This document shows, piece by piece, positions 7,527 through 53,659 of a stretch of 64,000 nt of DNA; position 1 is the first letter of the stretch; each line of letters begins with the position of its first letter. The notes under the pieces were generated by a model. That model saw nothing but the letters and a program-made list of their open reading frames with translations, did not search any database and was not told the DNA's origin. Made by a program: the position numbers and the translations under genes. The DNA is from Mixophyes australis (Eukaryota > Chordata > Amphibia > Anura > Limnodynastidae). The stretch spans positions 166,366,424 through 166,430,423 of the forward strand of contig JAVHZZ010000006.1 in assembly GCA_036250195.1 (NCBI GenBank). Direction: 5' to 3'.

Positions 7527-8191
7527 TGTTAGGAACCCCTCCAGCCGGCACAACACAACCCGGAATCTACTCTGCCAATCAGGTGTTCACTGTAGCCCCT
7601 GATGGTGGGGACAGACTGGGCCGCAGACTGACAGAGGGTCGTGAAGTGTATACCGGCTGGGGAGAACCCAGGCAAGCGGAGTGAGGTCCACGCAGAGGTC
7701 AAGGGCCGGCAGCAGACAACAGTATCGGAAAACAAGCTGAGGTCAGGGGTCACAAGCGGATAGCAGAAACAGTAAACAGGCCAGAGATCAGGGTCACAGG
7801 ATACACAAGCGAAGTCCAATTCAAAGCCAAGGGTCATACACGGGAAATCAGTAGCAGTTTCAGAGGACAGGAACGGGAACAAGCAGGTCAGTAGACTGGA
7901 GTACAGAAGCTATAACCAGCAATGAGGCAGCAGGCCTTAAATACTGTGAGCAGCCAATCAGAGCCTGGCTCTGAGAATACACAGCCCCTTGAATAAACAC
8001 TTTAATGAATTAATTAGCCCACAGGCTGGTAGTGCGCACGCGCCCGACACAGCCTCACCGCCGGGACGCAGCGCCAGACAGAAAGCGTCCGACCGTTGCC
8101 CTGGCAGGAAGTGACGTCCCGGTCGTCATAGCGACGGCCGGGACGCAGGTGAGTGAGTCACGGCGGCTGGGCACCGCCGCGGCTCGTAACA
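7527..8191 (-). repeat. Gypsy B 3' LTR
   Basis: 665 bp beginning TGTTAGG and ending CGTAACA. Its last ~250 bp match 9149-9418; the two differ by a short indel near 8105 versus 9315 and by substitutions. It is GC-rich near its right end. Confidence 0.85.
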
Positions 8192-9140
8192 GTACCCCCC
8201 CTTGAGGGGGGGGTCGAGGGACCCAGACATCCAGGTTTTCTTGGGAACCTCTTAAAGAACTCTTTCAACTGTTTGGGGGCATGGAGTTGTCTCTGCGGAA
8301 CCCAAGACCGTTCTTCTAACCCGCGGTTCCTCCACTGCACCAGGAAGTGCACCTGTCCTTGCACTCTTTTAGAATCCAGGATCCTTTGAACCACATATCT
8401 TGGTGGTTTGCTTGAATCCCCCCTAAGCACACTTGACGACTGGGTTTGGCTAGGATACAGTACTGGTTTCAACAGTGAACAATGAAATGTGTTGGGGATT
8501 CTTAAGGAGCTCGGAATTTTTAGCCTAAACACAACAGAATTAACCTGCTTAACGATAGAAAATGGCCCGATGAACTTAGGGCCCAACTTCTTGCAAGGCT
8601 GTCTAAGCCGGATATTTTTTGTAGACAACCAAACTTTCTGGCCCACCTTGAGGGAGCAGATGGTACGATGGCGGTCCAAATTTATTTTTGCCACAAATGA
8701 GGCTTGTCTTAATGATGATTGGACCTTCTTCCAGATAACTCTGAGATCCCTGGCAGTGAAGCGGATCTCCTGGGTACCAGCGGGCTTGAGTAAGTATAAA
8801 GAGTTAGACCTGGGGTAAAAACCATATTGCAAAAAAACGGGGAGGTTTTGGTGGATGAGTGACAGGAATTATTGTAGGCAAATTCCACCCAGGGTAACAA
8901 GGAGGACGAGTTGTCATGGAACTCTGATGTCTAGCAACGTAAAAACTTCTCCAAAGACTGGTTAACCCTCTCAGTTTGCCCATTTGATTGAGTGTGATAT
9001 GCGGATTACAAACTGACCTTGATTCCGAGAAGGGTACAGAAGGATCTCCAAAACAGTGCTATGAACTGAGACCCCCAATCAGAAACGATGTCAGTAGGAA
9101 GTCCATGGAGCCGGAAAATGTGCTGAATAAATAAGGCCTC
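8158..9140 (-). pseudogene. Gypsy B integrase C-terminus and chromodomain
   Basis: The longest open frame runs 8832-8158 on the minus strand. Upstream, in pieces, are the integrase core remnants (SDWGSQF-like and TERVNQ-like motifs, 9130-8900, with stops) and LLPWVEFAYNN. The open frame continues with the integrase C-terminal GPF segment (KFIGPFSIV). It then has a chromodomain (YVVQRILDSKRVQG ... WRNRGLEERSWVP), which targets integration in chromoviruses. The coding end overlaps the 3' LTR. The first part of pol is deleted, and in-frame stops break the integrase core. Confidence 0.85.
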
Positions 9141-11064: not shown

Positions 11065-12117
11065 TCTAGTGGCAGGAAGGGGCCATTCATGTTATCTCGG
11101 TTATCAACGACCATAAAAAATTCCAGTATATTGAGTCTGCAAAAAGGATGAATTCCAGAAAACTTCGGTGGGTACTCTTCTTTACCGGATTTCATTTCAT
11201 TATTACCTACAGACCCAGATCCAATCATGTCAAGATGGATGCGTTATCTAGAAGTTTCGTTTCTCTTCATGTACCTGCTTCTAAACCGTTGCCTTTTATC
11301 CCATCTTCCATTATTCATGATGGATTAACCCAAGATTTGGGTGTAACTTTAAGTAAATTCCAGAAATTGGCTCCCACAGAGACACTGGCAAACCGTCTCT
11401 TTGTTCCAGTCCACCTAAGAAAAGCAGTCCTCTCCGAAGCCCATGAGAGCAAGACCGCCGGTCATCCTGGAATCTCCAAGACCATGGAGATCTTTTCACA
11501 TTCCAATTGGTGGCCTTCCTCGTTTTCCGATGTCAAGAATTTTGTTCTGTCCTGTGAAAAGTGTGCAAAGAACAAAAGTCCCTGGAACTGCCCTTCAGAC
11601 TAGCTTAAGCCACTGTCTATCCCTTCAAAGCCTTGGACACACTTGTATATGGATTTCATCATAGACCTTCCCTGTTCCGCAGGACACATCATTATATGGG
11701 TTGTTGTTGACGGATTTAGTAAAATGTCTCATTTTATTCCTTTGACTAAACTTCCCAGCGCACGGAGTCTAGCATCACTCTTTGTTCAACATATCTTCCG
11801 GCTCCATGGCCTGCCCACAGCTATTGTTTCGGATCGCAGCTCTCAATTTGTTGCACAATTTTGGAGATCCTTTTGTTCACTTCTCGGGGTTAACCTTACC
11901 CTCTCACCAGCATACAATCCACAGTCAAAAAAACAGACTGAAAGGGTTAATCAGTGCTTGGAACAGTTTCTACGGTTGTACACCTCTGAATTACATGATA
12001 ATTGGTCATCCTTGTTATCAAGGGCAGAATTTGCATATAATAATTCATGTCATTCCTTCACTCGCACCTCTCCATTCGATTGCACTTTTGATTTTCACCC
12101 TAGATCCAACTCCTTGG
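11065..12117 (+). pseudogene. Ty3/gypsy RNase H-integrase remnant (gypsy C)
   Basis: The end of RNase H (IESAKRMNSRKLRWVLFF then DALSRSF) is followed by the integrase zinc-binding region (HESKTAGHPG ... CEKC). Then comes the catalytic core with three acidic residues still present (MDFI, VSDRSSQF, TERVNQ). The frame is the same throughout and is broken by a single TAG at 11601-11603 between the zinc-binding region and the core. RT is deleted upstream. The frame stops at 12117, where a MITE-like sequence begins, so the integrase C-terminus is lost. Confidence 0.85.
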
Positions 12118-12330
12118 GGTAAATGTATCATGGTCCGGTTTTTTCAACTCGCCGAAAATCGACGAATTGACAGCTAAAATTTAAAGCGGCGCTGGCTTGT
12201 AAAGGGAGGTTTGCCTTTACAGGCCAACGCCGCTTTAGTTAAGACCTGGGGGCATCCGAGTACCTGTGAACACACAAAGCTCTATGGGAAAGGCGACTGC
12301 TATAGGTGAAGACCTCGAATACATGTTCTG
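12118..12330. mobile_element. MITE-like insertion with strong central hairpin
   Basis: It begins GGGGTAAATGTATCA, a common type of amphibian MITE end, directly after the gypsy C integrase frame. It contains a near-perfect hairpin (12182-12237). The right boundary is uncertain. Confidence 0.45.
12182..12237. repeat. 24-bp-arm hairpin
   Basis: TAAAGCGGCG (12182-12191) pairs with CGCCGCTTTA (12228-12237). TGGC pairs with GCCA, and TGTAAAGG (12198-12205) with CCTTTACA (12214-12221). There is one mismatch and one wobble, and the loop is 8 nt. Confidence 0.9.
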
Positions 12331-13009: not shown

Positions 13010-14881
13010 TGTCAGGGTTCCCAAGGTAAGACCGCGGAGAGAAAGTAGGTGAACAAAGTGGTTTTATTAGAGACACAGGTAATACAGGATCAGGATGCAA
13101 TAACTAGTAAGGCAGTAATATAACCACAGTGGAATAGGGAATACTGTAAAGCAATGGTGAGAAGCAGTAGTCTGCGGATTGCAGGATTGAATACCTCTGG
13201 AAAGGTGGTGAGACGAGTAGCCTGCAGGTTGCAGGGTTGGATATCTCTGTAAAGGAGAGATGAGTAGCCTGTGGATTGCAGTGTTGGATATCTCTGGAAA
13301 GGAGAGATGAGTAGCCTGTGGATTGCAGGGTTGGATACCTCTGGAAAGGAGAGATGAGTAGCCTGCAAGTTGCAGGGTTACATACCTCTATAAAAGGTGG
13401 AGAGATGAGTAGCCTGCGGGTTGCAGGGTTGAATACCTCTAAAAGGTGGTGAGGCGAGTAGCCTGCGGGTCTCAATAAGGGGGTTTGCCCATTCCAGGGC
13501 TTTCCCTGTAAAGTAGGATAGCATGAAAAACACACAACTATCTAGGAGGTCGGGTATCGATGGATAGTAAGATACAAAATCTTACAAGGGTATTAAATTG
13601 CAGGATGTCCCCGTCAAAGGTAGGTGGCGGGAATTCCACAACGTGAGCAGAGTCAGCAGTTTTGGAAACTAAACTATAGGTGATTGGGTAACCAGAACCT
13701 TGGGGGGAGGGGGGGTTGGATCGAGAACAAGGATCCCCAACTGGGATGGCAAGAGAGGACTCGGACAGAGCACATGACTTGGAGGAAAGCTCGGGGTGGG
13801 CAAACTGCTTGCAGAACTCGGGTTCAGCTTAAATATTCGAAGGCCCGGACTGGGCACACGATTTGGCAGCACTGTGAGGAGCCCTGGACACGGCAGCAAT
13901 GTGAGGAGCCCCGGACACGGCAGCACTGAGTAAAAGGCAACTCGGGCCATTTAAAGCCTGAGTTGCCTTAAATGGCAACTCGAGATGTACCGTCAATAAT
14001 ATCTCAGGAGCGGACTGGAGGGACAGGGACCTCTCTGGAGTGGACTGGAAATTGTTTAAGCACCTTATTTAGCAAAGAAGATACTTGAGAGATTTGAGTG
14101 CGTAGTTGGAAAATGTCCACTTGAAGCATCTGGAACAGGAGATTTTCGGAAGAAATAGTAGCCATGGTCTTAAAAATGTTGAATACGAAGTAAAGCAATA
14201 CCCTGGGAATCCTCTACACAAGGGGAGAAAGCATGCAGCTGCAGGCTCAGTTCTATGGCCAGATCATACTGTCAGGGTTTCCAAGGTAAGACCACGGAGA
14301 GAAAGTAGGTGAGAGGAGTAGCCTGCGGATTGCAGGGTTAGATACCTGCAGAAACGTGGCGAGACGAGTAGCCTGCGGGTTGCAAGGTTGGATACCTCTG
14401 GAGAGGTGTAGAGATGAGTAGCCTGGTAATGCTGAAATACTTGAGAGCAAGCAGCAGGTAAAGGTAGAAGTAAGCTGAACAGGTTACCCTGAGAAGCAAT
14501 GAGCTGCAGAGAACAAAAGCACAGAGACCACATAGGTGTATAATTCAGGAACAGGGTAGATGAAGCAGTGTCTGCGGCACTGGAATGAACAGCAAAACAC
14601 CAAGACAGATAGACAGGAATGTATAATTAGGGACAAGAGTCAAAGGAAAATGCTTTCCATCAGGTTGAGTGACCTGATTATCTGGCCCAGTCTGCTGGGC
14701 GAGACTGTCTTTTAAGGAGTAGCAGAAGGTGTCATCATTAAAAACAAGTTCAGCAGGAAGGGAAATAGTTCAAGTGCCACAGTGGCCCCTTTGGTGACAT
14801 GGTGATACTGCAGGCTATATATATCCAGAAGACCCAACATAGCTCCTGGCAAACAGGAGCTGCAGGAGGCAGATCGTGACA
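13010..14881 (-). mobile_element. Defective minus-strand gypsy (gypsy E) with LTR minisatellite
   Basis: Two related LTR starts, TGTCAGGGTTCCCAAGGTAA at 13010 and TGTCAGGGTTTCCAAGGTAA at 14270, bracket a minus-strand Gag fragment. The Gag ATG is at 14164 on the minus strand. Its N-terminus (MATISSENLLFQMLQVDIFQ) looks coiled-coil, followed by fragments around 13620-13480 of the LQGKPWNGQTPLL type. The right copy ends GTGACA at 14881. Pol is absent. I see no clear target duplication. Confidence 0.7.
13160..13470. repeat. 47-bp tandem repeat in gypsy E LTR
   Basis: The unit gagatgagtagcctgtggat plus about 27 further bases repeats at a 47-bp step (for example 13262, 13309, 13356). Shorter arrays of the same unit occur in the other LTR at 14310-14430. 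Confidence 0.85.
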
Positions 14882-14951: not shown

Positions 14952-15367
14952 TTCTGGACTTTGATCTTTGGGAACCGCCAACCCAGAATGCTATCCTGGG
15001 GGTCAAGGCAGGATTTGTACGAAAGTGTCACTGTTCGGGAAATCCTGGATATTCGAGAGCAACACTGACTGGTGACATTGTGGATGAATTCTCCACTTTG
15101 GTGAATGTTGTAGCAAAAGCTGCCCAGCCTACTGAAAGTATACCATATTTTGTTATTAAAATTAATTTTCTGTGTAGAATTGGTATTTTATAAGGAAGAA
15201 AAACAGAACACTTCTCAGATTCATGTTCCTCAAGTGTTAAAAGCAGCACATACGCATGTCTGTGGGTGACAACTTGGGAAAATAAAACTCAAAAACAAGT
15301 TCTGCTCAAATTTTACTGGCCCGATGTACATATGACAGTAAAAAGAAATTGCCGGTCTTGTCCCACT
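14952..15367 (+). pseudogene. Gypsy D pol fragment up to integrase zinc-binding region
   Basis: A degenerate frame leads into an integrase HHCC-like region (HTHVCG ... NCRSCPT) ending at 15367, where the endogenous retrovirus interrupts it. The same frame resumes at 25234 once one copy of the 4-bp target duplication is discounted. Confidence 0.7.
15364..15367. repeat. Target duplication CACT, left copy (ERV)
   Basis: CACT directly precedes the 5' LTR and is repeated right after the 3' LTR at 25230-25233. A 4-bp duplication is what gammaretroviral integrases leave. Confidence 0.9.
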
Positions 15368-15981
15368 TGTCGAAGTCAGCAAATTGGATAAAGTCATTTC
15401 AATTAAAGTCTAGCAAACTTGGTTGTCTTTGTCTGAAAAGATGCGTACGGTACGCATCGACGTACAAGGGCACGCTACGGCGTGAAAGGGCGTACGCATC
15501 CACTACACGTGGCAGCAACAGTAATTGGTCTTTTACCATACATTCGCACAAACACGCATACTTATAAAATAGTACACATTATTGGTAGTTGCAACACATA
15601 GTCAGTTATGTCGAAATATAGTAGTATTTATATGTTATATCAGAGTTACATGCATATTAGTGAAATACACAGAACGGGTTAAAGGAATAACATCATGAGT
15701 GGTATCATAATGAACCTTGTTACATATCCTACTGTTTGGTGCGCTCTGCGAGGGAATCGCAGAGTGCATACGCAAGTTATGAATGATAGGGAATTATGAA
15801 CTACTTAAGACTAAGGAATTCTGGCGGGAAGAGCAGAGCATACCCCCTGCAGAGATGACCCCCTCCTTTGGATTCCTTAGGATGAACCAGCCAATGATTG
15901 ACGACCCCTTGGACATTCCTGAGACCCGGACCAATAGATGCAAGCCATACCATCTTCATTGTATTACTGTATTTGATTGTG

Positions 15982-15989
15982 TATATAAG
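15982..15989 (+). promoter_or_regulatory. ERV LTR TATA box
   Basis: TATATAAG about 140 bp upstream of the AATAAA at 16131, the expected spacing for a retroviral U3 promoter with R holding the poly(A) signal. Confidence 0.8.
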
Positions 15990-16130
15990 CAGCAGCTTGT
16001 GATCCAGAGTGCAGACTTCTTGTCCCCAGACTTCAGGATTGAATGACTGCACTGGATCCAGAGCGCCTGCGATAAGTAACGGCTGTATTTACTATTACTT
16101 CGCTTGAGCATATTTTTTCCACTTATTGCA

Positions 16131-16136
16131 AATAAA
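16131..16136 (+). promoter_or_regulatory. ERV LTR polyadenylation signal
   Basis: AATAAA followed by a T/G-rich stretch (TCTTTGTGCGTTGG). The base just before it (16130) is the only position where I find the two LTRs to differ. Confidence 0.75.
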
Positions 16137-16208
16137 TCTTTGTGCGTTGGAAACACAAATCGAGGTTCGACAATCGTTATTGGTTAGCGACGATACGCAC
16201 ATAACAAT

Positions 16209-16219
16209 TGGGGGCTCGT
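16209..16219 (+). promoter_or_regulatory. ERV primer binding site, tRNA-Pro-like
   Basis: TGGGGGCTCGT starts 2 bases after the 5' LTR. These 11 bases match the start of the proline-tRNA primer site used by many gammaretroviruses. The following bases (GAGCTTT) diverge from the usual sequence, so only the first 11 of 18 positions agree. Confidence 0.7.
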
Positions 16220-17218
16220 GAGCTTTGGAGGTTTCGTTGCCGATGATACGCAAGTCCAACGGATTTCGGTTCCTCAACAAAGGGTGGAGACGCGTCATAA
16301 ACGGGTAAGAACGCATGGTGTTCAAAACCTGAATTTTACTCTGTGTTGTGAAACCGAATGTCCGTTTTGCATTATCTAGGGCACGCTAACTAGAACCTAG
16401 GGACAAAAGAGAAAACTGTTTCTTTTTTCTGTCATTGTGCGTTTTAACTGTATTGCATTGTTTAGCGTATGTGTACTTCCTGCTGTGCGTACGCGAACTT
16501 CCGGTAAACTTGCCACGTGGTTAAACAATCGTTTTGATAGTTATTATACATGCATAGTATAATTACTTGTGAAAGCCTCTGAGACATTATTACTATTGTT
16601 GGGAACTTTTGATTTTCTGCGCAGAAAAGGTGTATAGTGTGTGATGTTGTAACGTAGATACACTGTTTTATTGTTGAGGTGCTCAGTTGCTGTCTGACGA
16701 GGCGGATTGCCCAACTGAAGGACGGTATACAGGGCAGGTATACCGAATGCGAAAACTGGGTTTTCGCAAAGCGCTACCAATAGATCGCAAGGTTTGCTAA
16801 TAATTAGTATTGGTAGGCAGTGCGATCCGGTCGCACCGTTAGTGCGAATTGGTGAAGCAGCTAGGAGGAATTATACTGGAAAGGCAGGTTGATTGTATCG
16901 ACTTTGCGCTCCCAGCGATAATAAACTCAGCAGATTTTGTGGTTTAGCCAGGGTATCGAGGAGCTGATAGCCCTTGGGGCCCACAGTGATATTTCTGTAT
17001 TAGGGATCCTCGCCAGGGGCGAGAAAAGCGAGTGAACGCGGCTAAAGGAAATACGTTCACCGAGGATTATAGATCTCTAGCGGTGAGTATAGCAACAGAG
17101 TTGAAATTATTAGGTGGAAAGAACAGAGCATTGCGGTGTGTCTGTATTTCACATTTGGCCGGAAGGAACAGAGCATTGCGGTGTGTCTGTGTTCCGGGTA
17201 GAAGGTATATTGTTCAAC
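16220..17218 (+). other. ERV untranslated leader
   Basis: About 1 kb between the primer site and the gag ATG, expected to hold the packaging signal and the env splice donor; neither can be pinned by eye. It ends with two near-identical copies of gaacagagcattgcggtgtg (17120 and 17166 on). Confidence 0.6.
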
Positions 17219-18838
17219 ATGGGTGCTAAGCATACGCTAGAGATGGTCAGTGTACTGCCTAAGGAAGGCCCTATTGGTTCAGCGAGGTTTCTCATGTGTA
17301 AGAAGTATGGTGCATATGCAACTGTGTATTGTGACACGTGGGTCGGGATGACCAAAACTTGTGATAGGCCTTTCCCAACAATAGGGAGTTTTAATGCAGA
17401 GGTGCTGAATACTGTAAAAGATAAAATATGGTTGATCAAGTCAACGAAAAAGAGAAATAGACATAATGATTGTTTAAAATTGTGGCAAATGGAAGGTAAC
17501 ACGTGGCAGAGCAGCGAATGCAAACCGGAAATAGGCGTGGCGAAAAGCGCGCGCAAGGCGGATGTAACCATTGAGAAGCGTGGCGAACTCAGCGCAAGCG
17601 CGCCCCCGCCACCTTATGTGGCGGGAGGGGTAAGTACAGCCGTTGTTAAAACTGAAAATAGAAAAATTACTAAGTTGTACCCTGTTTTAAATCAGTTTCA
17701 ATCAAGTGTATCTGAAAACGAAGATGAACCCACTGTGATTTCGGCCATTGCCCATGCTGTTAATGTACTAGAGGCTCAGCGCAAGTATGAGAAAATGGCT
17801 GAGATAGGTGAGAGTAGCGTGATCACTAGGAGTGAAAGTGTTCTAAATCTAGGGCCTGTAAATCCTGTAGCGTCCCCTGAAGTTAGTGTACCAGAGGGTG
17901 TGTTCCCGGTCCACACAATATCAGTTCCCAATGGGAAACCGGATAAGGATGGTGTAGTTCCTTTAAGAAATGTTACAATGCATTGTCCCTGGACTAGATC
18001 AGAATTACGTTCCATTATGACTGAATTCCCAGATCCTAGAAAAGAGTTAGCTAAATGTCAGAAATTTGTTAAAGACTTAGGGAATGCTCATGAACCAACC
18101 AGTAAGGATTGGCGGGTAGTGTTGAGGGCGTGTCTTCCTCCCAATACTAACATACAAAAATTTATTGGAGATTGTTTGTTGGAGGAAGATGACACCCTGA
18201 CTGATGAGATTAACCAACGTAATATAGAACAAATTGTCAAACACTTAGCCATCTGTTTTCCAGTAGTAGTAAATTGGAGTAAGATTTTCACCATTAAACA
18301 AAAGGATAGTGAAACTGCCTCAGATTACTTTGCTAGAGCTATAACAGCGATTGCACGATTTACTGGGATATCCAACATAAGTGAGGACCCACATCACAGA
18401 GAGGTAGCTGTAGGGGTACTGATGGATGGCCTTAGGGAAAATTTAAAGACGAGAGTACAAACCACATTACCTAATTGGAGAGGCGTCACGGTAGACTTCC
18501 TTAGGGAGTCTGCTGTGGAGCATGACAAGAACCTTTTTAGAAAAAGGGAAGAGAAAAGTGATAGGTTAATGACGGTAAGTATACAGGCTCTAGAAGGGGT
18601 GCATACACGACCACCAGCATACAACCCATATAACAGGAAACCTAAAGTGATCAGGTGTTTCAACTGTAACGAGGAAGGACATTACGCTAGAGATTGTAAT
18701 AAAGAAAGACTCAATACACATAGGGGTGGGTCACATAGATATCCTCCAAGAAAGGATTCACATAGACTAGAAGACTCACATCTACCCGCGCATATTACGG
18801 CAGCAAATGCTGCGCGGGAAATCACTAGTCAGCGCTAG
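17219..18838 (+). CDS. gag: ERV Gag polyprotein
   Basis: 539 residues. The start chosen is ATG at 17219: it has a strong context (AACATGG) and yields an N-terminal MGAKHT, a myristoylation-type signal as in gammaretroviral matrix. The open frame extends upstream to 17114 but only from a GTG. The central part is the expected matrix and capsid region. The C-terminal part has one CX2CX4HX4C zinc knuckle (CFNCNEEGHYARDC, 18656-18697, residues 480-493) for RNA binding, preceded by basic residues. It ends with TAG at 18836-18838, after which pol continues in the same frame. Gag assembles the particle at the membrane. No frameshift or internal stop is seen. Confidence 0.93.
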   Translation: MGAKHTLEMVSVLPKEGPIGSARFLMCKKYGAYATVYCDTWVGMTKTCDRPFPTIGSFNAEVLNTVKDKIWLIKSTKKRNRHNDCLKLWQMEGNTWQSSECKPEIGVAKSARKADVTIEKRGELSASAPPPPYVAGGVSTAVVKTENRKITKLYPVLNQFQSSVSENEDEPTVISAIAHAVNVLEAQRKYEKMAEIGESSVITRSESVLNLGPVNPVASPEVSVPEGVFPVHTISVPNGKPDKDGVVPLRNVTMHCPWTRSELRSIMTEFPDPRKELAKCQKFVKDLGNAHEPTSKDWRVVLRACLPPNTNIQKFIGDCLLEEDDTLTDEINQRNIEQIVKHLAICFPVVVNWSKIFTIKQKDSETASDYFARAITAIARFTGISNISEDPHHREVAVGVLMDGLRENLKTRVQTTLPNWRGVTVDFLRESAVEHDKNLFRKREEKSDRLMTVSIQALEGVHTRPPAYNPYNRKPKVIRCFNCNEEGHYARDCNKERLNTHRGGSHRYPPRKDSHRLEDSHLPAHITAANAAREITSQR

Positions 18839-18855
18839 GGGTCAGGTCATACCTG
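18836..18855 (+). promoter_or_regulatory. Gag-pol UAG readthrough site with hairpin
   Basis: The gag TAG (18836-18838) is followed by GGGGT and a small hairpin: CAGGT (18843-18847), loop CAT, ACCTG (18851-18855). The pol frame is identical to gag and open from 18839. In murine-leukemia-type viruses a UAG followed by a structured element permits termination suppression; the layout here matches that strategy. Suppression itself is inferred. Confidence 0.75.
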
Positions 18856-21800
18856 TAGTCTACAGCCAGTGAGGTTAACTGAGAGTCAGAGTGAAGAACC
18901 AACAATGATAGTTGACATAGCTGGCAGGAAACAAACTTTTCTTGTAGATACAGGGGCGGCCCGATCTGTGATAACCTCTCCTTTCAATCTACAGGTGACC
19001 GGCAAAACTATTCCAGCTATGGGGGTGACGGGAAAAGTGTTACATTATCCTCTAACTAAACCCGCCGAAGTTACTATCGGGCCTCTGCATACTAAGCATT
19101 CGTTTCTCTTGGCTGCAGCGGCTCCTACTAACTTGCTAGGGAGAGACTTGTTATGTAAAATGGGATGTGTCATATACTGTACTTCAGATGGTGTGTTCCT
19201 AGATATACCCGAGAAGGTTGCACATGAGGTACAGGACATATTGGACACCCCTCCAAGGTTAATGTTACACTCTCCTGTTATAGAACAAAGTCCATCTCAA
19301 GTAAAGGGGATGTTGCTGGAAATACCAGGTTCCCTATGGACCAGAGATGGACAGGACACTGGACTGATGGCAAACGTAGCCCCTGTCATGGTCAATCTAA
19401 AAAGTGGTAGGATAGCTCCAAAAATCCCACAGTATCCATTAAAACCGGAGGTGGAACTAGGGGTATATCCTGTTATTGAGAGGCTGTTACAACAAGGGAT
19501 TTTAATTCGTACAGCCAGTACAGCAAATAGTCCCATATTCCCTGTGAAGAAGAGTGGGGGGAGGGGCTATAGATTAGTCCAGGACTTAAGGGGAATTAAC
19601 AAAGTTGTTGAGAGCCAATTCCCCGTAGTGCCGAATCCAGCTGTCATCCTCATGCAGATTCCACCGTCTGCCAGTCATTTCACTGTCATTGATCTATGTT
19701 CTGCTTTCTTTTCAGTCCCTCTTCACCCTGACTGCCAATACCTTTTTGCATTCTCCTACAGGGGAGTGCAATACACATGGACCAGACTACCCCAGGGGTT
19801 CATTGACAGCCCCAGTATTTTCTCCCAGGCCTTACATGACTGTTTGCAATCCTTTCAACCCCACAATGGGTCTGTTCTAATTCAATATGTGGACGATTTG
19901 TTGTTGTGCTCTGATTCTTTTATGTCATGTTTACATGATACTAAATTGTTGTTGCTTCATCTTTCACAAACAGGGCACAAGGTGGCAAAGGATAAATTAC
20001 AGCCATGTCAGACTAAGGTCAAATACTTAGGACACTGCCTCACTAAGGGGCTAAGACACCTGACAACCGACAGAATTGAGGCCATACAACACATGACCCT
20101 GCCGCAGAGCCAGAAGCAGATTCGTACTTTCTTGGGGATGTGTGGATACTGTAGGTCCTGGATCCCAGGTTTTTCTATTCTGGCATTACCATTGCAGGAG
20201 CTAGTCTCTTCCTCAAAACCAGAATGTGTCGTACACACAGAAGAGTCGGAGCAAGCGTTCTTTAATCTTAAAGATAGTCTGACAAGAGCACCTGCATTGG
20301 GAATACCTGATTATGAAAAGCCTTTTGAGCTATTTTGTACAGAAGCTGATGGCTGTGCAGCAGGTGTCCTCACACAGAAACATGGTGACGCTAGCAGACC
20401 GGTAGCATACTACAGTGCACAATTAGACAATGTGGCAAGGTCACTCCCAACATGTCTTAGAAGTGTAGCAGCAACGGCCCTTCTAGTAAGTAAGAGTGAG
20501 GATGTAGTATTAGGACATAATTCAACCATCTATACACCCCATGCTGTATCAGCTCTGTTAAATTCAGCCCAAACCAGACATGTTTCTTCAGCTAGATTCA
20601 CAAAGTGGGAACTAGCCCTGATGGCACCCTCAAACATCACCATCAAACGATGTAGCACCCTAAATCCAGCTACATACCTTCCGTATGTGTCTCAAGAGAC
20701 ACAAAGGGTGGGAGGTGAGGAGACCCTGGTTGATGATGAGTTAGGCAAGAATACTGACACGCATGACTGTATGGAACACCTGAATCAGACCTTTACTGCA
20801 AGGCCCGACATACGTGACACCCCCTTAGAAAATGTAGATTTTACGTTTTATACAGACGGAAGTTGCCATAGACAGACAGAGACAGGAGAGCTATGTACTG
20901 GTTACGCTGTTGTAGACGATCAGGATGTGGTAGAAGCTGAACCCCTTGGTCCACCTCACTCAGCCCAGGTGGCGGAACTAGTAGCACTAAGGAGAGCGTG
21001 TGAATTGGCAGAGGGTAAATCAGCCAACATATATACTGACTCTAGGTACGCCTTCGGGGTAGTGCATGATTTTGGGGCCCTTTGGCGTCTTAGAAACTTT
21101 ACGACAGCAGCAGGTACACCAGTGGCACACTCACAACACATAAAAGGACTTCTGACAGCGATACAGTTACCCAGAACAGTAGCCGTCATAAAGTGCAAAG
21201 CCCATACCTTTGAAGAAGACCCAGTGTCATTGGGCAACAACAGGGCAGACGAAGCTGCTAAATGGGCAGCAGGGCAACCTATGACTGTATCGACCGAGAC
21301 TATGATGGTTTTTCAGACATTAGACACGCAGAAATTAATTGAAATGCAAGATTTGTGTTCCCTGCAGGAGAAGGCGGTCTGGAAGGCGAAGGGATGTGGT
21401 CAAGAGTCCTCAGGACTCTGGAGGGATGGACAAGGTAAGCCTGTAGCTCCCCGAACATACTATCCAAGCCTGGCTGAAGCAGCACACGGCCTGACTCACC
21501 TGGGTAAAGAAGGTATGTGCAAACTGGTGAGAGCATACTGGTGTGCTCCCGGATTTTCCTCTCAAGCTGGTAAGAAAGCAATGTCATGTCTTACTTGTTT
21601 GAGGAAAAATGTTGGGAAAACTATTCCAACTGAGCCATCCCACATCCCTCCTACAGACGGACCTTTTCAGGTAATACAAATTGACTATATCCAACTACCA
21701 CCGTGCAGGAATCTAAAGTATGTGTTAGTGTGTATTGATGTGTTTTCCGGTTGGGTAGAAGCATATCCGGCAGCCACTAATACTGCTGTGTTCACTGCAA

Positions 21801-22513
21801 AGAAAATTGTACAAGACTTTGTGTGTAGGTTCGGTATCCCTAGAATCATTGAAAGTGATAGGGGTACCCATTTTACTGGTGATATCTTCCAAAATATGTG
21901 TAAACTCATGGGAATCAGTAGCAGACTTCACACCCCTTACCGACCACAAGCCAGTGGTAAGGTGGAGAGAGTAAACGGTACTATCAAGAACAAACTAGGT
22001 AAGATAATGGCTGAAACTGGGTTGGCATGGCCTGAGGCTTTGCCGTTGGTCCTCCACAGCATTCGAACCACTCCTAGACCTCCTCTTAATCTGTCCCCCT
22101 TTGAGATACTGTTCGGACGACAACCTCATTTGATTGTGAGTCCACAAGACGACTTAAAGTGTAATAATGAAGTGACTGTACAATATCTTATAAGAATGAG
22201 TAGACAGCTGAAACAACAACAACAAAAACTAAAAATGCTGTCACCTGGTATGCCAGAGACGAACTGTCATGATGTTGAACCTGGAGACTATGTTATGATC
22301 CGCAATTTCTTACGTTCAGGTTGTTTAACAGACCGTTGGGAAGGCCCGTACCAAGTGCTGCTGACCAGTACTACATCACTGAAGGTTGCAGAGAGAGACA
22401 CTTGGGTCCATTCCACCCACTGCAGGAGAGTCCATAATCCGGAGAAAGTGCAAGACAAGACTCAGACCGACGACATAGAGCTGTCACTTGTGAGCCTGTT
22501 CCGGGAGACCTAA
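18839..22513 (+). CDS. pol: ERV Pol: protease, RT, RNase H, integrase
   Basis: 1224 residues counted from the codon after the gag UAG; no own ATG, so expression is by readthrough. Protease: DTGAARS with catalytic D37. Reverse transcriptase: LVQDLRGINK, then YVDD at residues 350-353 (19886-19897). RNase H: TDGS with D673, followed by the E and D residues (AELVAL, TDSRYA, NRADEA). Integrase: zinc-binding H-H-C-C (HGLTHLGKEG ... CLTC). Its catalytic triad is D949, D1007 and E1043, with 35 residues between the last two. It ends in a GPY-type C-terminal domain (WEGPYQV). All motifs are intact. The stop is TAA at 22511-22513. Confidence 0.94.
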   Translation, partial: GSGHTCSLQPVRLTESQSEEPTMIVDIAGRKQTFLVDTGAARSVITSPFNLQVTGKTIPAMGVTGKVLHYPLTKPAEVTIGPLHTKHSFLLAAAAPTNLLGRDLLCKMGCVIYCTSDGVFLDIPEKVAHEVQDILDTPPRLMLHSPVIEQSPSQVKGMLLEIPGSLWTRDGQDTGLMANVAPVMVNLKSGRIAPKIPQYPLKPEVELGVYPVIERLLQQGILIRTASTANSPIFPVKKSGGRGYRLVQDLRGINKVVESQFPVVPNPAVILMQIPPSASHFTVIDLCSAFFSVPLHPDCQYLFAFSYRGVQYTWTRLPQGFIDSPSIFSQALHDCLQSFQPHNGSVLIQYVDDLLLCSDSFMSCLHDTKLLLLHLSQTGHKVAKDKLQPCQTKVKYLGHCLTKGLRHLTTDRIEAIQHMTLPQSQKQIRTFLGMCGYCRSWIPGFSILALPLQELVSSSKPECVVHTEESEQAFFNLKDSLTRAPALGIPDYEKPFELFCTEADGCAAGVLTQKHGDASRPVAYYSAQLDNVARSLPTCLRSVAATALLVSKSEDVVLGHNSTIYTPHAVSALLNSAQTRHVSSARFTKWELALMAPSNITIKRCSTLNPATYLPYVSQETQRVGGEETLVDDELGKNTDTHDCMEHLNQTFTARPDIRDTPLENVDFTFYTDGSCHRQTETGELCTGYAVVDDQDVVEAEPLGPPHSAQVAELVALRRACELAEGKSANIYTDSRYAFGVVHDFGALWRLRNFTTAAGTPVAHSQHIKGLLTAIQLPRTVAVIKCKAHTFEEDPVSLGNNRADEAAKWAAGQPMTVSTETMMVFQTLDTQKLIEMQDLCSLQEKAVWKAKGCGQESSGLWRDGQGKPVAPRTYYPSLAEAAHGLTHLGKEGMCKLVRAYWCAPGFSSQAGKKAMSCLTCLRKNVGKTIPTEPSHIPPTDGPFQVIQIDYIQLPPCRNLKYVLVCIDVFSGWVEAYPAATNTAVFTAKKIVQDFVCRFGIPRIIESDRGTHFTGDIFQNMCKLMGISSRLHTPYRPQASGKVERVNGTIKNKLGKIMAETGLAWPEALPLVLHSIRTTPRPPLNLSPFEILFGRQPHLIVSPQDDLKCNNEVTVQYLIRMSRQLKQQQQKLKMLSPGMPETNCHDVEPGDYVMIRNFLRSGCLTDRWEGPYQVLLTSTTSLKVAERDTWVHSTHCRRVHNPEKVQDKTQTDDIELSLVSLFRET

Positions 22514-22570
22514 AGCCTGCAGTTGAGACACCTGAACCAGAGACGTTGCCTCAGAACTATCTTTCCAGCG

Positions 22571-24361
22571 ATGGAGTGGCGGTTTTTGTTTTTCTTTTGT
22601 TCCAGGATTTTCCCTGTTTTTACTTTTTCTAGGACATTCTATTTTTGTGAAGGAGGATGGAGGACGGAGGAGAGTTCTGGGAGTGATACGGATGAAATAG
22701 AGGCCGAAGAAAAGTTAATAGGATATCCTGAGCAGCCCATTATCAAACTTGGTCCAGGGGTTATGAAAAGGTCTGCTAGCTCAGGAACTCGGAGGCAGTG
22801 TGAGGGGCTATTGTCTGATGAGTATTGTATCTGCAAGTTCTGCAACTCCCTAGTTGACGAGAGATGCATCCAACGATGCCAGTCCCCCAGTACTCTGAAT
22901 ATAGGCGGGCATCCATTGGAGGATTATCACTCCCTGGTGGGTAAGGTGCTAAACCAAACTGAGTGTTGGGTGTGCTCTCACGTGCCTCAAGGGCAGCATA
23001 ACATAGGACTAGTGCCATTCCCGCTAAACATATCCGAAGTACTCGAATTAAGGGGTGGGAGGCCCATAGAAGGGAGGTACAATAACACTAGGTCCCCTAG
23101 TCTGACGCTTCGACAATACTCCATAGGCAGATCGTTGCTGTGCCTAAACATATCTCATGCAAAGCGCCTGGAGAATTGGGAGGCTGACCTATCAGATCAG
23201 ACAATGGCTCGCCACACTCATTTTAGAGAGAGACTCACAAGGTCACTACTAGGCAGGAATGCTGATGGAAGTCACAAGTTAGGGCGTATAACCAAACATA
23301 AGAAGGTATCTATTGGAAAAGTCTCTACAGATAAATGTGAAAATATCATTAATGCCGACACGTGTCTAGAGCAGATGGAGACACTAGGCATGGGTAGTTT
23401 TATCAAAACTCTGTGTGATATAATTCATGGGCATACTGTTCCTTATGTTCTCCCTGATGATGTGTATTTTGTTTGTGGGAGGAAAGCTTATTCCTGGGTG
23501 ACTCCGAGTTCCAAGGGCTTGTGTTTCTTAGCTAAACTAGTTCCTGAAATCATGACTATTACTCATGAAGAAATGGTAGATATTCACAAGACTACATCAC
23601 CACCATACATACACACACAGTATGAACACCGTGGCAAGAGAAATATGATTCCTGGTGAGGAACCCATAGCTACAAAATTGATTAGTGAAACTGCTGGTTT
23701 CCAAGCTATGGTTGCTCTAGATCTCACCAGGACTGCTCGGGGAACATTAAACTTTAAATATATCCAAGACCTAGCTAAATTAATAGATAATATCACCGAG
23801 ATGTATGATGACACTTTCAGGTATACTGGAAGGGAGCTACAAGCGTACAAGAAGGAGTTGGTGCAACATAGACTGGTACTAAATTATCTCACCTCTATTA
23901 CTGGTGGGTACTGTGTGACACTGGCCACCCAGTTCGGTGTCAAATGTTGCACGTACATTACTAATAATACGGAAGACCCTAAAGAGGTTATAGACCGGAA
24001 GATGGATGAAATTTTGCAGCTGAAATGGGAATTTCGAAAGAGCCATAATTCTTCGTTATATGAGGTCGGGGAAAAGGTGGCGGGTTGGTTCTCATGGTTG
24101 AACCCAGCAAAATGGTTCTCCGGTCTGGGGGAGTGGGTACAGGAAATGGTTGCTAGTGTAGGTAAGCTCCTTCTCCTTATACTGGGTGTCATCTTAGCAA
24201 TTGGTTTAGTTGTCAAATGTGTTCCTACTGTGTTGAAGTGTGGAAAACGGTCTCATGGGAGTAACACTGAGAAAGAGACTGAAAGGGTGGTACCAGATAC
24301 CGAGATCATGGTCTGTGAAGAAGTATTGTATAATCCTGAACTTGAAACGGTGTTTGGGTGA
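22571..24361 (+). CDS. env: ERV envelope glycoprotein
   Basis: 596 residues from ATG 22571; the frame is open from 22523 but without an earlier ATG. The N-terminus (MEWRFLFFFCS) is hydrophobic and fits a signal peptide. The surface subunit has a CXXC motif CWVC (residues 132-135) and several N-glycosylation sites. A furin-type site RGKR (354-357) separates it from the transmembrane subunit, about 239 residues. That subunit carries a C-X10-CC motif (C448, C459, C460), a tryptophan-rich pre-membrane segment (GWFSWLNPAKWFSGLG), a membrane span near 531-552, and a cytoplasmic tail of about 45 residues. Translation is presumably from a spliced mRNA. The frame is uninterrupted. Confidence 0.9.
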   Translation: MEWRFLFFFCSRIFPVFTFSRTFYFCEGGWRTEESSGSDTDEIEAEEKLIGYPEQPIIKLGPGVMKRSASSGTRRQCEGLLSDEYCICKFCNSLVDERCIQRCQSPSTLNIGGHPLEDYHSLVGKVLNQTECWVCSHVPQGQHNIGLVPFPLNISEVLELRGGRPIEGRYNNTRSPSLTLRQYSIGRSLLCLNISHAKRLENWEADLSDQTMARHTHFRERLTRSLLGRNADGSHKLGRITKHKKVSIGKVSTDKCENIINADTCLEQMETLGMGSFIKTLCDIIHGHTVPYVLPDDVYFVCGRKAYSWVTPSSKGLCFLAKLVPEIMTITHEEMVDIHKTTSPPYIHTQYEHRGKRNMIPGEEPIATKLISETAGFQAMVALDLTRTARGTLNFKYIQDLAKLIDNITEMYDDTFRYTGRELQAYKKELVQHRLVLNYLTSITGGYCVTLATQFGVKCCTYITNNTEDPKEVIDRKMDEILQLKWEFRKSHNSSLYEVGEKVAGWFSWLNPAKWFSGLGEWVQEMVASVGKLLLLILGVILAIGLVVKCVPTVLKCGKRSHGSNTEKETERVVPDTEIMVCEEVLYNPELETVFG

Positions 24362-24377
24362 TAGTTTATTACACTAT

Positions 24378-24390
24378 CAAAGGGTGGAAC
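24378..24390 (+). promoter_or_regulatory. ERV polypurine tract
   Basis: AAAGGGTGGAAC lies immediately before the TG of the 3' LTR, the position where plus-strand priming occurs. It is short and interrupted by a T and a final C. Confidence 0.55.
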
Positions 24391-25229
24391 TGTCGAAGTC
24401 AGCAAATTGGATAAAGTCATTTCAATTAAAGTCTAGCAAACTTGGTTGTCTTTGTCTGAAAAGATGCGTACGGTACGCATCGACGTACAAGGGCACGCTA
24501 CGGCGTGAAAGGGCGTACGCATCCACTACACGTGGCAGCAACAGTAATTGGTCTTTTACCATACATTCGCACAAACACGCATACTTATAAAATAGTACAC
24601 ATTATTGGTAGTTGCAACACATAGTCAGTTATGTCGAAATATAGTAGTATTTATATGTTATATCAGAGTTACATGCATATTAGTGAAATACACAGAACGG
24701 GTTAAAGGAATAACATCATGAGTGGTATCATAATGAACCTTGTTACATATCCTACTGTTTGGTGCGCTCTGCGAGGGAATCGCAGAGTGCATACGCAAGT
24801 TATGAATGATAGGGAATTATGAACTACTTAAGACTAAGGAATTCTGGCGGGAAGAGCAGAGCATACCCCCTGCAGAGATGACCCCCTCCTTTGGATTCCT
24901 TAGGATGAACCAGCCAATGATTGACGACCCCTTGGACATTCCTGAGACCCGGACCAATAGATGCAAGCCATACCATCTTCATTGTATTACTGTATTTGAT
25001 TGTGTATATAAGCAGCAGCTTGTGATCCAGAGTGCAGACTTCTTGTCCCCAGACTTCAGGATTGAATGACTGCACTGGATCCAGAGCGCCTGCGATAAGT
25101 AACGGCTGTATTTACTATTACTTCGCTTGAGCATATTTTTTCCACTTATTGCGAATAAATCTTTGTGCGTTGGAAACACAAATCGAGGTTCGACAATCGT
25201 TATTGGTTAGCGACGATACGCACATAACA
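24391..25229 (+). repeat. ERV 3' LTR
   Basis: 839 bp matching the 5' LTR, with one difference found (G at 25153). The AATAAA is at 25154-25159 and the TATA box at the equivalent position. It ends CATAACA, followed by the CACT duplication. Confidence 0.95.
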
Positions 25230-25950
25230 CACTTATCAGAGAACCTGTCTCAAACCCATGTATAGAGCACCTTTCAAACCAATACCAATAGCTCAGGTCC
25301 CCTTAGCACGTATAGGTATCGACCTTGTGAGGCCACTGGAGAAGTTCGCTTGAGAGCCCCAATATATACCAGTGGTGCTTGACTAGGCGACATGATATCC
25401 AGAGGCAGTTCCCATGCGGAATAGAAAGTCCAGCACTATATCTAACGAGCTATTGTTGATTTTTACACATTTGGGAATTCCCAAGGAAATTCTCACTGAC
25501 CAGGGCACCCTGTTCAAATATAAGTTGATGAAGGACATGTGTCAGCTATTAGGGGTGATGGTTCTTCACACCATCCACAAATGGAGCCTGATGGAGCACT
25601 TTAACTGCACATTAAAGCACATGATGAGAAAAGTTGTGGTGCAAGAAGAAAAACATTCTTATCCCATATTTGTTGTTTGCCATCCATGAGGTACCTCAAG
25701 CCTCAACAGGGTTTAGTCCTCTTGAGTTATTGTTCCGTAGACAGCCAAGGGGTATTTTGGACCTGTTGAAAGAAGGGTGAGAGCAAAAAGAACCAGAAAG
25801 CTAAATCTGGTACAATTTGTGGGCCAAATGTATGAGAGGTTGGAAAAGATAGGGTCCATTGTATGACAGCATGTAAAAGAGGAAATTGAATTTCAAAGTA
25901 AAAGAATGTTCTGAACAGGGCACCCTGTGAATAAATAATATCCACTATGA
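25230..25950 (+). pseudogene. Gypsy D integrase core, downstream part
   Basis: After the ERV the gypsy integrase frame resumes (RTCLKPMYRAP..., then IGIDLV), with stops. The core follows (frame 25414-25689) with LGIPKEILTDQG, which holds the second catalytic D. The E-containing SLMEHFN and then STGFSPLELLFRR-like sequence come next in another frame. It decays by about 25950. It is old and broken, unlike the ERV it hosts. Confidence 0.75.
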
Positions 25951-28133: not shown

Positions 28134-29691
28134 CTAAGGGTGGGACCGCTCTGAAACCCCCGCTTGCAGAGCACTACGAGCGAAATCTGCATCTGCGGAT
28201 GCGAATACATTAAATTGATAGAATTTGGTAAATGTGTGGACAGAAGACCAGGTGGCTGCCCTGCAAAGCTGGTCAGCAGAAGCCCCATTCCTCGCTGCCC
28301 ACGACGCCCCTACCGATCTGGTGGAATGGGCCGTAAGTCTCTCCGGCACAGGCCGGTTAGCTGTTGTGTAAGCCTGCCTAATAGTTGCCGTAATCCATCT
28401 TGCAATGGACTGTTTAGAGGCTGGCCAGCCTCTTTTGTTAGAATCATATAGGACAAACAGAGAATCGGTTCGTCTAATCTGAGATGTTATTTTGACATAA
28501 ATATGGAGAGCCCTGACCACATCCACATCTAACTTTTTCATAGACTGCCGATCAGAGTGAGAAGATGAAAAAACCGGAACTACAATTTCCTGGTTCAAAT
28601 GGAAAGAGGACACCACTTTTGGAACAAAGGAGGGGAGTGTTCTCAGAACCGCTCTGTCCTCGTGAAAAACCAGATATGGCGCTGCGGAATTAGTGGCGCT
28701 ATATAAATAAATGATGATGATGATGATAATATGGCTCCCGGCAAGACAGAGCTCCCAATTCCGATACCCTACGTGCCGATGCAATTGCTAAAAGAAAAAC
28801 AACCTTCCAGGTTAAACACCTAAAATCTGCCTCAGGTAAAGGTTCAAAAGGAGGCCCTTTAAGTATGTCCAGTACCAGGTTAAGATCTTATGGTGCTGTA
28901 GGTGGAACATAGGGAGGTTGAATATGTAAGACTCCCTGAAGAAAAGTCTTGATATCTGGTAACTCCGCTAATTTCCGATGAAAAAAGACTGACAGAGCCG
29001 ATACCTGAACCTTTAGGGAACCTAACCGAAGACCTGCTTCCAGCCCATGCTGAAGAAAAGCCAATAAGCGTGGGAGACGGAAGGAAGACGTGTGATATGA
29101 CCTATTTTCACACCATCTGATATAGGCTCTCCAAATCCGCTGATAGATGCGAGCCGAAACTGGTTTTCGAGCTTGCATCATAGTGTTAACTACACTAGAG
29201 GAAAAACCCCTAGCCCTCCAGACGCTGGCTTCAACATCCATGCCATTAAACTGCGCTGAGGAAAATTCTGGTGACTGAAAGGACCTTGAAGAAGGAGGTC
29301 GTCTCGTGGTGGAAGACAAAATCCTTATCTTATCGGAAGACCCCCTTGCCTTACTCGTCTGAGCATGTGAGGAAGCATGGGAATCGGAGGAACCAGGTAT
29401 CCCAACCTGAGCTCCCATGACATCGCCCTTGCTAAAAACCTGTGAACCTTCTTGTTGTGTCTTGAGGCTATGAGATCTATATCCGGAAGACCCTACCTCT
29501 GAAATAGAGACTGAAATACATCCGGTTGGAGTGACCACTCCCCCGGCATCATTTGATTTAGACTTAGATAGTCGGCCTCCTAATCCTTTATTCTTGGAAT
29601 GAATACTGCCGAAATTGCCGTAACCTATTGTTCTGTCCAACAAAAAATCTGAGCTGCAGTTTTCATTGCGGCTGCACGCCTGGTTCCTCAC
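28134..29691 (-). pseudogene. DIRS-type tyrosine recombinase, disrupted
   Basis: The N-terminal part (29691-28888) has the core-binding-like segment (ARKPVSARIYQRIWRAYIRW ... LGSLKVQVSALSVFF). It ends in a TAA at about 28886, after which the same protein continues with SARRVSELGAL, which contains the first catalytic arginine. The C-terminal frame (to 28134) has HSTRSVG (His-x-x-Arg) and TWSSVHTFTKFY with the tyrosine nucleophile. A 49-bp retroposon insertion lies at 28680-28728. One stop plus this insertion break an otherwise well-preserved recombinase. Such enzymes integrate circular DNA copies of DIRS elements without target duplication. Confidence 0.85.
28674..28734 (+). mobile_element. 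49-bp truncated retroposon with 6-bp target duplication
   Basis: ATATGG at 28674-28679 is repeated at 28729-28734. Between them lie CGCTGCGGAATTAGTGGCGC, TATATAAATAAA and a short TGA repeat. This matches the 3' tail expected of amphibian L2-mobilised retroposons. It is a severely 5'-truncated copy inside the recombinase frame. Confidence 0.75.
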
Positions 29692-52822: not shown

Positions 52823-53659
52823 TTAATACTTTGTTGCGCAGTCAATTACAGCCTGAAGTCTGGAACGCATAGACATTTCCAGACGTTGGGTTTCATTCCT
52901 GGTGATGCTCTGCCAGGCCACTACTGCAAATGTCTTCAGTTCCTGCTTGTTCTTGGGGCATTTTCCCTTCAGTTTTGTCTTCATCAAGTGAAATGCATGC
53001 TTAATCGGATTCAGGTCAGGTGATTGACTTGGCCATTGCATAACATTCCAGTTGTTAGCCTTAAAAAACTCTTTGGTTGCTTTTGCAGTATGCTTCGGGT
53101 CATTTTCCATCTGCACTGTGAAGCGCCGTCCAATGAGTTCTGAAGCATTTGACTGAATATGAGCAGATAATATTTCCCGAAACACTTCAGAGTTCATCTT
53201 GCTGCTTTTGTCAGCAGTCACATCATCAATAAATACAAGGGAACCAGTTCCATTGGCAGCCATACATACCCACGCCATGACACTACCACCACCATGCTTC
53301 ACTGATGAGGTGATATGTTTTGGATCATGAGCAGTTCCTTTCCTTCTCCATACTCTTCTCTTCCCATCACTCTGGTACAAGTTGATCTTTGTCTCATCTG
53401 TCCATAGAATGTTGTTCCAGAACTCTAATGGCTAATTTAGATGTTGTTTGCCAAACTCTAATCTGGTCTTCCTGTTTTTGTGGCTCACAAATGGTTTACA
53501 TCTTGTGGTGAACCCTCTATGTTCACTCTTGTGAAGTCTTCTCTTGATTGTTGACTTTGACACATATACACCTACCTCCTGGAGAGTGTTCTTGATTTGG
53601 CCAACTGTTGTGAAGGGGTTTTTCTTAACCAGGGAAAAAATTCTTCTGTCATCCACCAC
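52823..53659 (-). pseudogene. Tc1-like transposase, frameshifted, catalytic Glu lost
   Basis: The N-terminal frame 53659-53432 has the helix-turn-helix region (VGQIKNTLQEVGVYVSKSTI). The C-terminal frame 53380-52823 has KHGGGSVMAWVC, then ENDPKHT with the second catalytic Asp, then SPDLNPIKHAF. In Tc1-type enzymes the third catalytic residue is Glu at the position that here reads Lys (NPIKH). The two frames are separated by a frameshift and stop near 53381-53431. It is a dead transposase. Confidence 0.85.

What the first reader, a model, noticed from the sequence alone, without database searches (positions are those of the whole stretch)
15368..25229. Nearly unmutated, apparently complete endogenous retrovirus
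Seen directly: two 839-bp LTRs with a single difference found (16130/25153), a matching CACT duplication, and open gag, pol and env with all key catalytic motifs. Known: the LTRs of a provirus are identical at integration. Inference: a very recent insertion, possibly polymorphic and possibly still able to express proteins. Intact amphibian class I ERVs with env are uncommon relative to decayed copies.
Basis: partly seen in the sequence, partly recalled or inferred. Interest (0 to 1): 0.92.

Follow-up and report, generated by a model that had tools for sequence, protein, structure and literature searches.

The report
Young intact frog endogenous retrovirus
A frog genome carries a very recently inserted and apparently complete retrovirus whose surface-protein gene has an unusual spacing in a normally fixed three-cysteine motif.

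Summary
LTRs at 15368-16206 and 24391-25229 are 839 bp with one mismatch (16130 A / 25153 G) and are flanked by a CACT duplication. gag (17219-18835), pro-pol (18839-22510, behind an in-frame TAG) and env (22571-24358) are open and keep their key motifs. The 4 env hits include Mixophyes fleayi (90%) and Pseudophryne corroboree, so the host is very probably an Australian frog. Pol sits in a supported group whose host-labelled rows are all frogs, split off from the rows with REV and mammals: class I, but probably not the genus Gammaretrovirus. As a provirus it is a new member of a known kind.

The less ordinary part is Env. It is gamma-type by layout, but the TM motif is C-X10-CC instead of C-X6-CC. 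All four relatives compared share the 10-residue spacing, though the M. fleayi one lacks the third cysteine. A 2024 paper states that all gamma-type Envs have a constant 26-residue ISD plus CX6CC block (PMC11575397, passages). Copy number, polymorphism and expression could not be tested: the genome search did not complete (nine requests).

The parts
15364..15367 (.). target-site duplication CACT, left
15368..16206 (+). 5' LTR, 839 bp; CCAAT 15891 and 15931, TATA-like 15982, AATAAA 16131
16209..16226 (+). probable primer-binding site; first 11 nt fit tRNA-Pro (recalled tRNA sequence), the rest do not
   Evidence: sequence; assignment recalled
17083..17088 (+). candidate splice donor GTGAGT upstream of gag (pattern match only; two more such patterns lie in gag, 17630 and 18575)
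17219..18838 (+). gag, 539 aa, N-terminus MG; PPPY at residue 130; MHR pattern 18299-18337; CCHC 18656-18697; TAG stop 18836-18838
18839..22513 (+). pro-pol, 1224 codons in the gag frame: protease DTGA (from 18947), RT YVDD (from 19886), RNase H, integrase HHCC (from 21485) and DDE (from 21683), MLVIN_C with WEGPY (from 22337); TAA stop
22571..24361 (+). env, 596 aa, same frame as pol; CWVC from 22964; RGKR ends at 23641; hydrophobic span about residues 522-559; TGA stop
23912..23950 (+). TM cysteine motif C-X10-CC (residues 448-460)
24391..25229 (+). 3' LTR, 839 bp, one mismatch to the 5' LTR (25153)
25230..25233 (.). target-site duplication CACT, right

Best explanation
A young germline provirus of an anuran class I retrovirus lineage, probably in an Australian frog near Mixophyes. 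It entered the chromosome by ordinary retroviral integration (TG..CA ends, 4-bp duplication: shown). It encodes gag, pro-pol in the same frame behind a UAG (shown), presumably translated by stop-codon readthrough (inferred), and env, presumably from a spliced mRNA (inferred). Env most likely works like other gamma-type Envs: SU and TM joined by a disulfide between the N-terminal CWVC of SU and the last cysteine of the TM motif, released on receptor binding (inferred). In this lineage the loop closed by the intrasubunit disulfide is four residues longer than the standard one.
For: LTR identity and duplication; uninterrupted ORFs; domain content; the best PDB matches of pol are p80 RT/RNase H chains such as 4hkq (503.6 bits, query residues 152-810; MLV type is recalled for that entry), far above the Pr125Pol and HIV RT chains in the same list; the SU C-terminal part of Env matches Syncytin-1 (3.4e-08); the pol tree puts the window with P0005 and P0006 (100*) in a group of 11 rows (97*) holding 6 of the 7 frog-labelled rows and no other labelled host, separate from the 11-row group with REV; X10 spacing in 5 of 5 proteins compared, the window included; a 4-residue gap opposite Syncytin-1 and Syncytin-2.
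Against: No expression, protein or copy-number evidence. MFE folding downstream of the TAG is no better than shuffles (z 0.58; pseudoknots not modelled). The PBS fits tRNA-Pro for only 11 nt (recalled). No strongly hydrophobic stretch follows the cleavage site (best 15-residue mean 0.93; no known fusion peptide was scored as a control). The polypyrimidine-CAG pattern found by the scan (22589-22605) lies behind the env ATG, where splicing would remove it; the acceptor before the ATG is by eye. The AlphaFold model of Env failed (mean pLDDT 32.4), so nothing structural is shown. P0001 has lost the third cysteine, and none of P0001-P0004 reaches Pfam's cut-off for a retroviral Env family. CpG in pol and env is as low as in the flanks.
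Confidence: 0.87

Rival explanations
1. An older provirus whose LTRs were homogenised by gene conversion, so that the near identity does not mean youth.
For: Gene conversion between LTRs is known in general (recalled); CpG in pol and env is as low as in the flanks.
Against: All three ORFs are also intact, the duplication is perfect, and CpG is undepleted in LTR and leader. Conversion between LTRs would not protect gag, pol and env.
Confidence: 0.06
2. The env, or the whole provirus, is kept open by selection for a host function (a syncytin-like or restriction use) rather than by youth.
For: The TM half is strongly conserved among relatives 35-54% identical to the window. P0002 stands for 31 member sequences, so related env sequences recur in assembled public data.
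Against: gag and pol are equally open and the LTRs nearly identical, which youth alone explains. The 90%-identical M. fleayi gene model is truncated at both ends and lacks a key cysteine.
Confidence: 0.04
3. An assembly artefact, such as collapsed LTRs, or a contaminating exogenous provirus.
For: Raw reads cannot be seen.
Against: Host-like, transposon-rich flanks meet the LTRs with a perfect duplication, and the two LTRs still differ at one base.
Confidence: 0.03

Closest known systems
Unannotated env/gag loci of Mixophyes fleayi (P0001) and Pseudophryne corroboree (P0003, P0004, P0125)
   Same: 90%, 53%, 37% (env) and 47% (gag) identity over the aligned part; 10-residue spacing in all three env proteins
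   Different: Predicted gene models only; P0001 is truncated and lacks the third cysteine; whole proviruses were not seen
Pol proteins P0005 and P0006 (lgn assemblies, host not given)
   Same: 81% and 59% identity, nearest rows of the window in the tree with full support
   Different: Host and provirus context unknown
XtERV-S of Xenopus tropicalis (PMC8278194)
   Same: Intact frog ERV with identical LTRs; gag and pol in one frame separated by a stop; gamma-type TM; N-terminal CXXC in SU
   Different: Class III gag-pol, tRNA-Ser PBS, CX6CC, TGA as gag stop, 705-bp LTRs, env overlapping pol in another frame (paper)
Gammaretroviruses (REV; MLV as structural reference)
   Same: Class I pol domain order, MLVIN_C, same-frame UAG between gag and pol, tRNA-Pro-like PBS start (UAG and PBS of MLV recalled)
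   Different: Pol lies outside the group with REV and mammalian rows; no Gag p30 match; CX10CC; env does not overlap pol
Syncytin-1 / Syncytin-2
   Same: Homologous SU C-terminal region and TM; N-terminal CXXC as in Syncytin-2 (PMC9967133, passages)
   Different: C-X6-CC in both; captured host genes (PMC9967133, passages)

Membership tests
Endogenous retrovirus (provirus) | Two LTRs with TG..CA ends flanking gag-pol-env, target-site duplication | tested here: met
Class I ERV | pol groups with gamma/epsilon-like elements, protease in the pol frame | tested here: met
   protease in frame, MLVIN_C, best PDB matches p80 RT chains, Pr125Pol and HIV RT much lower. No class II or III row was in the tree, so the tree alone does not test it.
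Genus Gammaretrovirus | pol within the clade of REV and mammalian gammaretroviruses | tested here: not met
   the 11-row group with REV (100*; birds, lizards, bats, other mammals, a gammaretrovirus MAG) excludes the window; quick tree, SH-aLRT only, drawn with a midpoint root
Genus Gammaretrovirus | Gag p30 domain recognised by Pfam | tested here: not met
   only zf-CCHC matched at E up to 0.01
Genus Epsilonretrovirus | pol within the clade of WDSV and kin | not tested
   no named epsilonretrovirus was among the 45 rows
Gamma-type Env | CXXC in SU | tested here: met
   CWVC at residue 132; also CWVC in P0001 and CWMC in P0002; P0003 and P0004 start later
Gamma-type Env | CX6CC with three cysteines in TM | tested here: not met
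   C-X10-CC; the three cysteines are present, only the spacing differs
Gamma-type Env | ISD with N, R, D at the three positions reported as 100% conserved | tested here: not met
   H, R, N in the window, mapped by alignment to the Syncytins. The pigeon row P0050 also departs (N, Q, D), so this is a weak criterion.
Gamma-type Env | labile SU-TM disulfide | not testable with these tools
   needs protein
Gamma-type Env | TLV_coat homology | tested here: met
   3.3e-06, 26.6 bits against cut-off 22.5. Relatives: P0001 and P0004 match below the cut-off, P0002 and P0003 do not match it

The most novel reading that the evidence does not exclude
A retrovirus lineage still active in Australian frogs uses a modified SU-TM disulfide switch (CX10CC, altered ISD, weakly hydrophobic fusion region), showing that the ISD-CX6CC block described as invariant in length can be re-engineered by evolution while entry is kept.
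Probability: 0.4. Interest if true: 0.62.

Novelty: new variant of a known kind. Interest (0 to 1): 0.45.

Why it matters
A recent, apparently intact class I provirus would show that retroviral germline invasion of these frogs is recent and perhaps continuing; one host of a relative, Pseudophryne corroboree, is critically endangered (PMC12314482, abstract start). The Env lineage gives a natural exception to a motif spacing that a recent paper treats as constant, so the contribution of loop length to the SU-TM disulfide switch could be compared across natural sequences. If the X10 spacing proves common in other unsurveyed amphibian or fish Envs, the point shrinks to a correction of a sampling bias.

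Tried and rejected
Copies in the host genome: the genome search (own, the LTR as query) was sent nine times and never answered, so copy number, solo LTRs, host tRNA genes and orthologous sites are untested.

Structure: AlphaFold of Env on a 5-row alignment gave mean pLDDT 32.4, so no fold search was made and its secondary structure is not used.

IMG/VR scan with env: two stretches matched a pattern, no relative confirmed.

Readthrough structure: 70 nt from the gag stop on fold no better than shuffles; this neither supports nor excludes a pseudoknot.

Accessory gene: the ORFs of 40 aa or more that overlap the leader and the 116-aa ORF at 24240-24590 (no Pfam match) were taken as chance; no other test was made.

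Gammaretrovirus genus: rejected on the pol tree. That tree used a quick search on 44 of the 120 listed pol hits plus the window (one search lists 120 of 370 hits; only the 7985 candidates sharing most words were scored); rows that the tool flagged for long branches or odd composition were kept.

ISD departures as a novelty: downgraded, because the pigeon row P0050 also departs at one of the three positions.

PDB control for spacing: one search matched 48 distinct chains, of which only the five alignments shown (Syncytin-1 three times, Syncytin-2 twice) were looked at; one of those five (5ha6) has CS in place of CC. In one search five alignments were shown of six matches. The profile search (8 matches up to E 10) added no further gamma-type Env.

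Papers: searches; Mixophyes together with 'endogenous retrovirus' gave no paper.

Full report
What is there. The window holds one complete provirus on the + strand, 15368-25229. The LTRs are 839 bp with one mismatch, at 16130/25153, the base directly before the AATAAA at 16131; TGT..ACA ends and CACT on both sides mark a retroviral integration with a 4-bp duplication. CCAAT (15891, 15931) and TATA-like (15982) sites lie in the LTR. The leader between the LTR and the gag ATG is 1012 nt; it holds seven ATGs (an eighth lies in the LTR behind the TATA) and a 30-bp direct repeat, 29 of 30 identical, shortly before gag.

Genes. gag is 539 aa from ATG 17219 (MGAK...), with PPPY at 130, an MHR pattern match at 361-373 and one CCHC knuckle at 480-493; Pfam sees only the knuckle. 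A single in-frame TAG at 18836 separates it from pro-pol, which runs to TAA 22511. Pol carries protease, RT, RNase H-like, RNase H, integrase zinc-binding (below its cut-off), core and MLV-type C-terminal domains with DTGA, YVDD, HHCC, D949-X57-D1007-X35-E1043 and WEGPY. Its best PDB matches are p80 RT/RNase H chains (4hkq, 503.6 bits; MLV type recalled), while Pr125Pol chains score up to 188 bits and HIV RT chains lower. env is 596 aa from ATG 22571, in the same frame and not overlapping pol. CTTTCCAG stands two bases before that ATG, a plausible acceptor by eye, but the pattern scan itself picked a polypyrimidine-CAG at 22589-22605, behind the ATG. GTGAGT at 17083 is a plausible donor, with two more patterns inside gag. 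Splicing itself is inferred.

Age. One difference in 839 bp gives 0.2 to 1.2 My for assumed rates of 3e-9 to 0.5e-9 per site per year, with Poisson limits from 0.01 to 6.6 My across those rates (rates recalled, not measured for this frog). CpG observed/expected is 0.93 in the LTR and 1.08 in the leader against 0.44 and 0.39 in the flanks, which fits little decay; gag is 0.65, but pol and env are 0.37 and 0.44, so this is only partial support.

Host and kin. Of 4 env hits, one is from Mixophyes fleayi (90% over 76% of the query), two from Pseudophryne corroboree (53% over 74%, 37% over 51%), one from an unnamed assembly set with 31 members (56% over 88%). The only gag hit is from P. corroboree (47% over 59%). 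Pol hits run 81% and 59% (unnamed assemblies), then 46% (Rana temporaria), 45% (Bufo gargarizans), 45% (a sea turtle) and 38% for REV (370 hits, 120 listed). In a quick ML tree of 45 rows (window and 44 chosen hits; unrooted, drawn with a midpoint root) the window joins the two unnamed rows (100*), within an 11-row group (97*) that holds 6 of the 7 frog-labelled rows (Bombina falls elsewhere), the window and four unnamed rows; the group with REV, a gammaretrovirus MAG, bats and other mammals, birds and lizards (11 rows, 100*) is separate. The host is therefore very probably an Australian frog near Mixophyes; the species is not established. A genome paper puts the split of M. fleayi and P. corroboree at 80 My (PMC12314482, abstract passage).

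Env. The C-terminal part of SU matches Syncytin-1 (3.4e-08) and TM carries ISD, cysteine motif and a hydrophobic span, so it is a gamma-type Env by homology. It departs in three ways. First, the TM motif reads C-X10-CC in the window; the 10-residue spacing is present in 5 of 5 proteins compared (window, P0001-P0004), of which four keep all three cysteines and P0001 has CY in place of CC. HMMER places a 4-residue gap in Syncytin-1 and Syncytin-2 opposite it and a 3-residue gap in chain 4n21. A pigeon Env fragment has X6 and aligns there without gap to the Syncytins in the five alignments shown (43 further matched chains were not looked at). Second, the ISD positions reported as N, R, D in all 37 sequences of a 2024 study (PMC11575397, passages seen) read H, R, N in the window, P0001, P0002 and P0003 and H, R, D in P0004 (position mapping through the Syncytin alignment); chain 4n21 reads H, E, N (a reptarenavirus by recall) and the pigeon row N, Q, D. 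Third, the 55 residues after the cleavage site hold no strongly hydrophobic 15-mer (0.93 in the window; 0.63 to 1.49 in the other four), so the fusion peptide is weak or internal; no known fusion peptide was scored alongside. XtERV-S also has its hydrophobic stretch set back from the cleavage site (PMC8278194, env section read).

Is the spacing new? The 2024 paper says the combined length of ISD and CX6CC is constant; a 2023 review writes CXnCC, 'typically, n = 6' (PMC9967133, passages), which leaves room for exceptions. A full-text search for CX10CC and five related terms found no paper with CX10CC (10 papers held one of the other terms). This library lacks most subscription papers, and other notations would be missed, so 'unreported' is not proven.

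Mechanism. Shown: provirus anatomy, open frames, homology, motif spacing. Inferred: readthrough, splicing, disulfide pairing, fusion. The best reading is a gamma-type Env with a longer closed loop. The spacing recurs in relatives 35-54% identical to the window, so it is unlikely to be a defect of this copy; that it is kept by selection is inferred, as no DNA of the relatives was at hand for a rate test.

What is unexplained. The PBS fits tRNA-Pro (recalled) for 11 nt only. In a young provirus one expects agreement with the primer tRNA; either the host has an unusual tRNA or the primer is another one.

Verdict. The provirus is a real, recent, apparently intact member of a known kind. The Env variant is the part a retrovirologist would want to see.

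Noticed in passing
window 16209-16226: The primer-binding site matches tRNA-Pro (recalled) only over its first 11 nt, odd for a young provirus.
   Followed up: partly
window 8158-8868 (-), 11070-12122 (+), 54104-55207 (-): Pieces of Ty3/gypsy-type retrotransposons: integrase-related domains, two with a Tf2-1-like SH3 domain and one of these also a chromodomain (10 flank ORFs scanned).
   Followed up: no
window 28134-28787 (-): Weak tyrosine-recombinase match (PF00589, below its cut-off); may be a DIRS-like or Crypton-like element.
   Followed up: no
window 52823-53431 (-): DDE_3 transposase match in a 202-aa ORF.
   Followed up: no
window 13166-13440 and 14311-14425: Tandem repeat of a 47-bp unit (5.7 copies) and a related 50-bp one (2.3 copies) just 5' of the provirus.
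   Followed up: partly
window 17116-17190: A 30-bp direct repeat (29 of 30 identical, copies at 17116 and 17161) shortly before the gag ATG.
   Followed up: no
window env ISD (residues about 430-448) against chain 4n21: The GP2 chain 4n21 shares H and N at two ISD positions with the frog Env; too short to argue kinship.
   Followed up: no
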